Below, piece by piece: positions 43,353 through 50,755 of a stretch of 64,000 nt of DNA. Origin of the DNA: Pseudonocardiales bacterium (lineage in GTDB: Bacteria > Actinomycetota > Actinomycetes > Mycobacteriales > Pseudonocardiaceae); the NCBI GenBank assembly GCA_019244165.1, contig JAFATA010000038.1, forward strand, positions 1-64,000, read 5' to 3'. Positions within the stretch are counted from its first letter, which is position 1. The number at the start of each line of letters is the position of its first letter. The position numbers and the translations under genes are program-made. Below the pieces are notes generated by a model, which saw only the letters and a list, made by a program, of their open reading frames with translations, had not been told where the DNA came from and did no database searches.

Positions 43353-44144
43353 ATGCACGTTCCGCGACCGAGTCGATCTCGCTCGCATCTCATGATTCCC
43401 CGACACCGGGGGCCCCGAAATCTCGCGGTGAGCACTGTTGCCGCGGGCAATGAGTACACCGGCATCCCCCAGCCTCCGACAACCCAGCCCTCGGCGATGG
43501 CCCACTGCTCGGCTGAAAAACCGAGTCGGGATCCGAACCCGATCCGGGTATTGCTGGTTATCGACATGAGTCTGCTTCGTGGAGCGCTTGCCACCCTGCT
43601 GTCCAGTGAGAACGACATCGAAGTGGTGGCCGGTATGGCCGCGGGCGACCGGGTGGTCCCCATCGCGATCCGCCACCAACCCGATATCGCGGTGCTGGAT
43701 GTCGACCAGGGTGGGTCGGACGTGCTTGCGACCGCGCAAGCGCTGCACGAGCGGCTACCCAAGTGCCGGGTGGTCGTGCTTGCGGCAGCACAACGACCGG
43801 GTTTGGTCCGCCGGGCACTGGATGTGCCGGTCGCTGGAGCGGTGGACAAGGACGCGCAACCTCGGCGTCTGCTCACCACCATTCGCCAGGTCGCCAAGGG
43901 AAAGCGGACCATCGACCCCGCCCTCGCGGTTGCCGCGATCGGCGTGGCAGGCAGCCCGCTGACACCCCGGGAACTCACGGTGCTCGACCTCGCCTCAGGC
44001 GGGGCGTCGCCGACCGAGATCGCCCAGCGGCTTTTTCTCAGCCGCGGGACGGTATGCAACTACCTTTCGCGCATCATGACCAAGCTGGAGGCCCGGACCC
44101 GGATCGATGCCATTCGCATCGCCGCCGAGGCGGGCTGGATCTGA
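43353..44144 (+). CDS. LuxR-family response regulator (RamR-like by position)
   Basis: REC-like IRVLLVIDMSLLRGALATLLSSENDIEVVAGMA and HTH LTPRELTVLDLASGGASPTEIAQRLFLSRGTVCNYLSRIMTKLEARTRIDA; downstream of the lanthipeptide operon. Confidence 0.85.
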   Translation: MHVPRPSRSRSHLMIPRHRGPRNLAVSTVAAGNEYTGIPQPPTTQPSAMAHCSAEKPSRDPNPIRVLLVIDMSLLRGALATLLSSENDIEVVAGMAAGDRVVPIAIRHQPDIAVLDVDQGGSDVLATAQALHERLPKCRVVVLAAAQRPGLVRRALDVPVAGAVDKDAQPRRLLTTIRQVAKGKRTIDPALAVAAIGVAGSPLTPRELTVLDLASGGASPTEIAQRLFLSRGTVCNYLSRIMTKLEARTRIDAIRIAAEAGWI

Positions 44145-45998
44145 CAGTTGTGATGACGACAGTCGTGGTGACGACGGGCCGGTGACAACAGCCAGCTCCA
44201 GCCCGTCATCACCACGACGAGCAATGCCCCCCTGACGAGCGAACTGGCCACTGCCCCACTGACCGACCAGCTCGCGGTACAGCGGCGCAGTCGCGAACAG
44301 CTCTCGGTGTGTGCCCGATACCATGGCGGTGCCGTCCATCAGCACGATCCGCTGCGCCCGCAGCGCGGAGCTGATCCGGTGCGCAACGACGATAAGGGTG
44401 CCCCCCCTGCTTGCCAGAACCCGCTCCACCCGCTCCTCAGCGACCGGGTCGAGGTGGCAGGTGGCCTCGTCCAGGATCAGCACGGAAGCCGCGGTCAGGT
44501 GCGCCCTAGCCACGGCGATGAGTTGCCGTTCCCCTGCGGAGAGCATTCCGGGGGCCAGCGCAGCGTCGTATCCACCGACGCGGGCCACCAAGGAGCGCAG
44601 GCCCAGCGCCTCGACCACGGTGTCAAGCTCAGCGCAGGTAGCGCTGGGATGCAGGTAACGCAGGTTCTCGCCGAGGGTCCCGGTGAAGACATACGCTTCC
44701 TGGGGGATTAACACCCGGTGGCTGGCCAGGGTGTGCGCCTCGAGATCCCCGACCGGCACCCCACCCAGGCGGACCTCGCCGCGGTTGGGGACGTGCGTCG
44801 CGGCAAGCAGCCCGGCCAGGGTGGACTTCCCTGCACCGCTGGGACCGACCACAGCCAGGTGCTGCCCTTCCGGGATCACCAGATCCACCTGGTTCACCAC
44901 CGGCTCGGCGTGGCGGCCATAGCAGAACGTGACACCATCGAGCACCATGTCGTGCCCACGGGGGGTGCTCCGCTGCGCCCTCCCGGCGGGTACCGGGCGT
45001 TCGCCCGCCTCGACGAGCCGATCCAGGGTGACCACCAGCTTCAGTCCCCCGGCACCCAAACCGTCGACCAGCGACTTTAACGCCGGAAGCAGGCCTTGGG
45101 TCAGGTAGACCAGGGCGCCGGCGATCGTGCCCAGCGTCGAGCCGGTCGCCACCAGCCAGGGCGCCCCCACCAGTAGGCCTACCGCGGGCAACCAGCCGCC
45201 GACCGCCACCGACAGCGTGCGGATCGCCGCCATCCGGGCCAGCGTGCGTTCCGCTTCCGCGTGCGCGTCGACCTGACGTTGCACCGGCGCGCAGGCCCGG
45301 TCCTCGGCACCGCAGGCGACCACGTCACGCAAGCTATGCGCGACCGTGCTGGCGGACTCGGCGACCCCTTCGTCGGTGAGCACATGATCACGCTGCCGGG
45401 TCATCATGGAGCGTAAGGAGGCCAGGAAGAAAGCCAGACCCGCCAGCAGCGGTGGCAGCACCAGCAGGCCGACCAGCCCGGTCAGGGCGGCTATCCCGAT
45501 TACCGCACCGGCCGCGCTGACCACGAAGCCCCTGGTGAGCAGGAGCAAACCAGCGAAGTTGTCCCGCACCACCTCAACCTGGTGAGTCAGCCGGGCAACC
45601 GCGCCCGAATCGGGCCGTCCGCCGAGCACGGTAGACCGCTGCAACGCACCCCCCACCACGCTATCCACCAGGTCATCGCGGAAGGGCTCGACAATCTCGG
45701 CGAGAATCCGGTAGACGTGCCGGGTGGCCAACGCCCCCACGAGCACTGCCACAGCCAGCACGCTGAGCCACATCAACCCGGTTCCAGGCCGGCCAGCCAG
45801 GAATCCGTCATCCAACGCGTGGGCCACGCTGTAGCCGGACAGCAGCAGCGGAAGCATCTGCAGCACTGACCACGTCGCCAACCGCACCAGTGCCCGCGGG
45901 TGCCGGCGTAAGGCGGCGAGCAGTACCCGGGGCACGGTGTTCACCACTGATTCCCGGTCTGCTGATCTCCCCTGCGCTAATCTCCTTTGGGGGGTCAT
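43995..45998 (-). CDS. ABC transporter, fused permease/ATPase (lanthipeptide exporter subunit)
   Basis: VVGPSGAGKSTLAGLLA Walker A, LSAGERQLIAVARAHLTAASVLILDEAT; ATG overlaps stop of the upstream ABC gene. Confidence 0.9.
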   Translation of the reverse strand: MTPQRRLAQGRSADRESVVNTVPRVLLAALRRHPRALVRLATWSVLQMLPLLLSGYSVAHALDDGFLAGRPGTGLMWLSVLAVAVLVGALATRHVYRILAEIVEPFRDDLVDSVVGGALQRSTVLGGRPDSGAVARLTHQVEVVRDNFAGLLLLTRGFVVSAAGAVIGIAALTGLVGLLVLPPLLAGLAFFLASLRSMMTRQRDHVLTDEGVAESASTVAHSLRDVVACGAEDRACAPVQRQVDAHAEAERTLARMAAIRTLSVAVGGWLPAVGLLVGAPWLVATGSTLGTIAGALVYLTQGLLPALKSLVDGLGAGGLKLVVTLDRLVEAGERPVPAGRAQRSTPRGHDMVLDGVTFCYGRHAEPVVNQVDLVIPEGQHLAVVGPSGAGKSTLAGLLAATHVPNRGEVRLGGVPVGDLEAHTLASHRVLIPQEAYVFTGTLGENLRYLHPSATCAELDTVVEALGLRSLVARVGGYDAALAPGMLSAGERQLIAVARAHLTAASVLILDEATCHLDPVAEERVERVLASRGGTLIVVAHRISSALRAQRIVLMDGTAMVSGTHRELFATAPLYRELVGQWGSGQFARQGGIARRGDDGLELAVVTGPSSPRLSSSQLSDPARLGGDANGIDPGPGLQLGHDARKVVAYRPAAEKKPLGDLGRRRPA

Positions 45999-50711: not shown

Positions 50712-50729
50712 TGTGTCCCCCTCGTCAAC

Positions 50730-50755
50730 CGATTATCGCTATGCAGCAATAATCG
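50730..50755. promoter_or_regulatory. 26-bp interrupted palindrome upstream of LanKC; candidate operator
   Basis: CGATTATcGCTATGCAGCaATAATCG, ~19 bp upstream of the LanKC GTG. Confidence 0.5.

What the first reader, a model, noticed from the sequence alone, without database searches (positions are those of the whole stretch)
43353..50755. Complete RamCSAB/R-like lanthipeptide locus next to bioFD
Seen: LanKC, precursor, ABC exporter 1, ABC exporter 2 lie in one minus-strand operon (the two ABC genes overlap by ATGA), with a LuxR-type regulator convergent at the 3' end. Established: this content matches the Streptomyces ram operon (ramC-S-A-B plus ramR), which makes the SapB morphogen for aerial growth. 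Inference: with an SsgA-like protein also present, the product may be a morphogenetic surfactant. The altered core and the convergent regulator orientation suggest a divergent subfamily.
Basis: partly seen in the sequence, partly recalled or inferred. Interest (0 to 1): 0.8.

Follow-up and report, generated by a model that had tools for sequence, protein, structure and literature searches.

The report
Single-ring SapB-like lanthipeptide locus
This stretch encodes a complete, ram-operon-like machine for making and exporting a small ring-containing peptide, and although the machine is of a known kind, its peptide keeps only one of SapB's two rings and has gained a fast-changing, histidine/cysteine/aspartate-rich head, a design shared by more than a hundred uncharacterised environmental relatives.

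Summary
The locus encodes a class III lanthipeptide synthetase (1113 bits to LanKC), a 38-aa precursor scoring above the SapB/AmfS family cut-off, two ABC exporters and a convergent response regulator. This is the known ram/amf architecture. The altered core is real. SapB-type precursors carry two SxxSxxxC ring motifs. This precursor carries one (SFLSLLLC), ending where SapB's first ring ends, preceded by KGNDDCYERDHCCG. All 11 genomes of this uncultured Pseudonocardiaceae genus have such a precursor. A profile search found 112 single-ring precursors with 108 distinct heads. Leader and ring are nearly frozen, while the head varies freely (pooled pN 0.33, pS 0.28) but stays almost purely Gly/Asp/Cys/His/Arg (apolar residues 2%, against 33% in two-ring spacers). 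The best reading is a one-ring, head-to-tail amphiphile made, exported and controlled as SapB is. Metal binding, or removal of the head with the leader, remain open. A morphogen role is unproven, and no chaplins were detected in the five genomes of this genus that I searched. New variant of a known kind.

The parts
48060..50711 (-). lanKC/ramC-like class III lanthionine synthetase (lyase-kinase-cyclase), GTG start
   Evidence: NF038151 1113 bits; RamC_N, Pkinase, LANC_like; closest solved relatives are LanKC structures
47938..48054 (-). ramS-like precursor: leader MVLLDLQAME, spacer/head LSSELKGNDDCYERDHCCG, ring SFLSLLLC, tail D
   Evidence: NF033212 33.3 bits; family match in 11/11 genomes of the genus
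45995..47833 (-). ABC exporter 1 (ramA-like); likelier start GTG 47794, preceded by GGAGG
   Evidence: ABC_membrane + ABC_tran
43995..45998 (-). ABC exporter 2 (ramB-like); ATG overlaps exporter 1 stop (ATGA); its C-terminal tail runs antisense into the regulator gene
   Evidence: ABC_tran; most relatives stop about 80 codons earlier
43497..44144 (+). ramR/amfR-like response regulator with LuxR-type HTH, convergent with the operon
   Evidence: Response_reg 39 bits + GerE 55 bits; 85-93% identical orthologs, always convergent
50773..50839 (-). conserved promoter block upstream of lanKC with the palindrome GTGATTCCTTCAC (inside 50801-50815) and, in most relatives, a second one, GTGAATCAC; putative regulator operator
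   Evidence: alignment of 10 genus promoters; only match in the own genome at up to 2 mismatches; absent from the other lanKC promoters scanned

Best explanation
This is a ram/amf-type class III lanthipeptide locus whose product is a one-ring amphiphile. Likely mechanism: the convergent response regulator binds the conserved palindromes about 100 bp upstream of lanKC and switches on lanKC-lanA-abc1-abc2 (inferred). LanKC binds the LLDLQ leader, phosphorylates and eliminates the two serines of SFLSLLLC, and closes one labionin or lanthionine ring onto the last cysteine (inferred from family chemistry). The two ABC half-transporters export the peptide, and an unclustered peptidase, such as an AplP-type M1 enzyme, removes the leader (inferred). 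The product would be a greasy ring tail (SFLSLLLCD) carrying a strongly polar Asp/His/Cys/Arg head, with head cysteines free, disulfide-bonded or metal-bound. Such a head-to-tail amphiphile could act at the cell surface or air interface as SapB does, with the polar head in place of SapB's second ring. The biosynthetic logic is well supported; the surface role is inference.
For: Family assignment of every gene. The same order and convergent regulator in genus relatives and in Streptomyces relatives. LanKC and precursor in 11/11 genomes of the genus. 112 single-ring precursors with nearly frozen leader and ring and 108 distinct heads. Head mean hydropathy -1.63 against tail +1.48; apolar residues 27/1456 in heads against 58/176 in two-ring spacers and 18/65 in the paralogous cluster. 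At least one head Cys in 110/112. Conserved promoter palindrome unique to this site. An M1 peptidase exists elsewhere in the genome; AplP-type M1 enzymes process class III leaders and are often unclustered (PMC10885120).
Against: No product is known. Class III leaders can be trimmed stepwise from the N-terminus, so the head may be lost. SapB and AmfS have two rings. In durhapeptin, replacing hydrophobic residues abolished activity (PMC13380574), so a very polar head could be incompatible with a SapB-like role. No chaplin match passed the cut-off in the genus genomes searched.
Confidence: 0.55

Rival explanations
1. The head is a metal-binding module: the peptide binds Cu, Zn or Ni through its Cys/His/Asp head, as an exported metal carrier or buffer anchored by the hydrophobic ring.
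For: Cys+His+Asp make up 740/1456 (51%) of the 13 residues before the ring, against 18/176 in two-ring spacers; 110/112 heads keep at least one Cys and 101/112 have a Cys next to an acidic/Asn residue or in CGDD; noursin shows that a class III lanthipeptide can bind copper (PMC10206099).
Against: No metal gene was recognised in or next to the cluster. The number and spacing of Cys and His vary widely, which is unusual for a defined metal site. Noursin's copper binding needs a His-to-butyrine link made by a separate synthetase subgroup.
Confidence: 0.2
2. The hypervariable segment is only a spacer in the leader and is removed; the product is a minimal one-ring peptide such as CGSFLSLLLCD, and the segment drifts.
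For: Head pN (0.33) is about equal to pS (0.28), as in an unconstrained sequence; lengths vary from 15 to 26 residues; M1 proteases trim class III peptides stepwise.
Against: A free spacer should accept apolar residues: about 24% of single-base amino-acid changes in these head codons would give one, yet only 2% of head positions are apolar, and 110/112 heads keep Cys.
Confidence: 0.25
3. It is a functional SapB equivalent, a morphogen for aerial hyphae.
For: Same gene content and regulator orientation; NF033212 membership; three SsgA-family genes in the genome.
Against: One ring instead of two; no chaplin detected; the organism is uncultured and its morphology is unknown; many class III clusters with this layout have no demonstrated developmental role (own knowledge).
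Confidence: 0.25
4. It is a strain-specific signal or bacteriocin whose head is under diversifying selection.
For: Two copies in one genome (L108, L112) are identical at the DNA level in leader and ring but differ by 8 nonsynonymous and 1 synonymous changes in the head.
Against: pN/pS is only slightly above 1 and the pairs are not independent; no immunity or receptor gene was recognised in the cluster.
Confidence: 0.15

Closest known systems
ramCSAB/ramR (SapB) of Streptomyces coelicolor and amfTSAB/amfR (AmfS) of S. griseus
   Same: Gene content and order, convergent response regulator, LLDLQ-type leader; the ring SxxSLLLC matches SapB's first ring (S-R-A-S-L-L-L-C, own knowledge of SapB).
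   Different: Second ring absent; polar hypervariable Cys/His/Asp head; no evidence of a developmental role.
Streptomyces-type class III clusters L044, L046-L049, L053, L054, L056, L057 (precursor MALLDLQTME..STVSLLSCVSAASVLLCL)
   Same: Nearest LanKCs found outside Pseudonocardiaceae, about 48-53% identical; same ABC pair and, where the contig reaches, the same convergent regulator.
   Different: Two tandem ring motifs; short Gly-rich spacer.
Paenithopeptins/bacinapeptins (precursor group Pre_24, Firmicutes; PMC8960859)
   Same: Only one S-x2-S-x2-5-C motif per core.
   Different: Firmicutes; QA(A/V)(D/E) cleavage motif and M16B proteases; a His/Cys/Asp head is not described in the passages read.
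Noursin (LanKC-Hbt; PMC10206099)
   Same: Class III, single Cys-based ring; precedent for metal binding.
   Different: Needs a Thr/His pair for histidinobutyrine inside the ring and a separate synthetase clade; its BGC carries an S9 peptidase.

Membership tests
Class III lanthipeptide biosynthetic cluster | LanKC with lyase, kinase and LanC-like cyclase domains, scoring as class III rather than class IV | tested here: met
   NF038151 1113 bits (cut-off 575); class IV LanL 402 bits, below its cut-off of 650
Class III lanthipeptide biosynthetic cluster | Precursor with LxLQ leader and SxxSxxxC core | tested here: met
   MVLLDLQ...SFLSLLLC; NF033212 33.3 bits
Class III lanthipeptide biosynthetic cluster | Labionin or lanthionine actually formed | not testable with these tools
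   Needs mass spectrometry of the product
ram/amf (SapB/AmfS) morphogen system | Gene order C-S-A-B with a convergent response regulator | tested here: met
   ramR stated as convergent in PMC10090380
ram/amf (SapB/AmfS) morphogen system | Two ring motifs in the core (SapB and AmfS contain two lanthionines) | tested here: not met
   One motif here and in all genus orthologs; two or more in the clusters of other genera examined with a recognised precursor
ram/amf (SapB/AmfS) morphogen system | Promotes aerial hyphae as an extracellular surfactant | not testable with these tools
   Uncultured organism; needs an assay
LanKC-Hbt (noursin) subgroup | Three Ser/Thr and one Cys in the core, with Thr and His for histidinobutyrine, plus a clustered S9 peptidase | tested here: not met
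   No Thr in the precursor; no peptidase among the cluster genes scanned
Single-motif Pre_24 (paenithopeptin) group | One ring motif plus the QA(A/V)(D/E) leader cleavage motif | tested here: not met
   One motif present, QAAD-type motif absent

The most novel reading that the evidence does not exclude
A large, uncultured subfamily of SapB-like lanthipeptides has lost the second ring and turned the freed part of the core into a hypervariable, Cys/His/Asp-rich head under selection for change, so that it works as a metal-binding or strain-specific amphiphile rather than a generic morphogen.
Probability: 0.2. Interest if true: 0.7.

Novelty: new variant of a known kind. Interest (0 to 1): 0.48.

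Why it matters
SapB/AmfS-type precursors are described as the commonest lanthipeptide precursor family (PMC7268733), and two ring motifs are their usual plan. A clade that keeps the whole ram machinery, keeps one ring nearly unchanged and replaces the rest with a fast-evolving polar head gives a natural test of which part of the peptide carries the function. It also offers over a hundred uncharacterised precursors, with a possible metal-binding or strain-specific chemistry that can be tested in E. coli from two genes.

Tried and rejected
Convergent regulator as a sign of divergence: rejected. Second ring hidden downstream of the precursor stop: nothing seen in the sequence. Chaplins as support for a SapB-like system: none over the cut-off in five genomes of the genus, with a Streptomyces positive control. 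Regulator palindrome shared with other lanKC promoters: the GTGATTCCTTCAC form was not found in the Amycolatopsis-like, paralogous or Streptomyces promoters scanned (the L054 row there was mis-placed and was ignored). Single origin of the one-ring state: neither shown nor rejected (two changes on the best tree, p-AU 0.246). The 38-aa precursor alone was too short to search, so a profile of 12 orthologs was used. Literature searches for metal-binding or hypervariable class III lanthipeptides and for uncultured Pseudonocardiaceae SapB returned nothing closer than noursin, in an open-access library only. Structure prediction was not run: homology already fixes the enzyme class, and it would not tell the ring chemistry.

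Full report
What is there. The minus-strand operon and its convergent regulator are exactly as described. LanKC (48060-50711) matches the class III synthetase model with 1113 bits (cut-off 575) and only weakly the class IV model (402 bits, cut-off 650); it holds RamC_N, kinase and LanC-like domains, and its closest solved relatives are LanKC structures. The kinase motifs HGDLHLFN and DFE are present, and the usual LanC zinc-ligand cysteines appear to be missing, as expected for class III (direct reading; family knowledge). The precursor, MVLLDLQAMELSSELKGNDDCYERDHCCGSFLSLLLCD, exceeds the SapB/AmfS family cut-off (33.3 against 25 bits). Two ABC exporters follow, overlapping by ATGA, and a response regulator with a LuxR-type DNA-binding domain reads towards them.

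Not chance, and not private to this contig. The window lies in an 88% complete draft genome. Relatives at 83-89% LanKC identity are metagenome-assembled genomes, most of them labelled Pseudonocardiales. All 11 genomes of the genus have both a LanKC and a SapB/AmfS-family precursor. Gene order, including the convergent regulator, is kept wherever the contig is long enough; bioF and bioD lie beyond the regulator in several.

The orientation argument fails. Streptomyces-type clusters L044, L047, L048, L053, L054, L056 and L057 also have a convergent regulator after the second exporter, and PMC10090380 describes the S. coelicolor ramCSAB operon as convergently transcribed relative to ramR. The layout is the canonical one.

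The core is the real difference. Two tandem SxxSxxxC motifs are described for the SapB/AmfS-type subgroup around durhapeptin (PMC13380574), and the clusters of other genera examined here with a recognised precursor have two or more matches. Here there is one. The retained ring, S-x-[IL]-S-L-L-L-C, has the form of SapB's first ring, and many orthologs stop with SLLLCG or SLLLCGD, the point where SapB's second ring would begin (SapB sequence from own knowledge). In its place, between leader and ring, is a head made mainly of Asp, His, Cys, Arg, Gly and Tyr. The single-motif state is known in Firmicutes paenithopeptins, where it was noted as unlike the usual two or three motifs (PMC8960859), so it is a variant and not a new class.

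How large the variant is. A profile of 12 orthologs found 167 proteins at E up to 0.01; of the 120 listed (one of them the window's own), 112 are single-ring, with 108 distinct heads. Names given by sources for the single-ring ones are MAG records or generic annotations; I saw no cultured isolate among them, though most entries carry no name. In the 13 residues before the ring, G 23%, D 21%, C 15%, H 15% and R 11% dominate; apolar residues are 27 of 1456, against 58 of 176 in two-ring spacers and 18 of 65 in the second, paralogous cluster of the same genus. The sequences are related, so the Fisher value should be read as descriptive. 110 of 112 heads keep at least one Cys.

How it evolves. Pooled over pairs, the head has pN 0.33 and pS 0.28, while leader plus ring has pN 0.07 and pS 0.23 (pairs are not independent). 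The two copies in genome G049 are identical in leader and ring down to silent sites but differ by eight nonsynonymous changes and one synonymous change in the head. Yet only 2% of head positions are apolar, although about a quarter of single-base amino-acid changes there would give an apolar residue. In a small set of close pairs, 2 of 27 head differences involved an apolar residue, which is suggestive only. So the head varies freely within a strict polar alphabet. That can be diversifying selection or drift under a composition rule; these data do not separate the two.

History. The best tree needs two changes in ring number, but one origin is not rejected (p-AU 0.246).

Regulation. Ten genus promoters share a block about 100 bp upstream of lanKC with the palindrome GTGATTCCTTCAC and, in most, a second one, GTGAATCAC. 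The first occurs once in the whole own genome at up to two mismatches, exactly here, and was not found in the other lanKC promoters scanned. The convergent regulator is the natural candidate to bind it; this is inference.

Mechanism and limits. Shown: gene identities, order, conservation, one ring motif, head statistics, promoter block. Inferred: dehydration of the two ring serines and closure on the last Cys, export by the ABC pair, leader removal by an unclustered protease (an M1 peptidase exists in the genome; AplP-type M1 enzymes do this elsewhere), and action as a surface-active amphiphile with a greasy ring and polar head (hydropathy -1.63 against +1.48). Whether the head survives maturation is the main unknown. 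A morphogen role is possible but untested: SsgA-family genes are present, but the one in the window is 33 kb away, and no chaplin passed the cut-off in five genus genomes while the Streptomyces control gave ten.

Noticed in passing
50935-51645 (+): A nucleotidyl transferase gene (PF00483, 103 bits) sits between lanKC and the rluA/lspA genes; no match to it was found in the relatives' loci, where rluA (when present) lies 150-850 bp upstream of lanKC, so it may be an insertion private to this genome.
   Followed up: partly
L117 8298-8906 (G049, contig C247): A second copy made of LanKC fragments (residues 1-55, then 429-485, then the 3' end) followed by an intact precursor that differs from the main copy only in the head: a degenerate duplicate or an assembly chimera.
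   Followed up: partly
L079, L080, L081, L082, L102: Several genus members carry a second, about 60% identical LanKC cluster with single-ring precursors whose heads are not Cys/His/Asp-rich; no regulator match was found next to it, and it was not found in the window's genome.
   Followed up: partly
43995-44144: The ABC exporter 2 reading frame runs about 150 bases antisense into the 3' end of the regulator gene; most relatives stop earlier, so the tail is probably dispensable.
   Followed up: partly
10863-11629: An SsgA-family gene is followed closely by three tRNA genes; the genome has three SsgA-family genes in all.
   Followed up: no
P0106, P0110, P0115, P0121: Precursors with two similar rings (such as SDVSVTLC and SEVSLLLC) and GHSC or GASC spacers look intermediate between the Amycolatopsis-like two-ring form and the single-ring form.
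   Followed up: no
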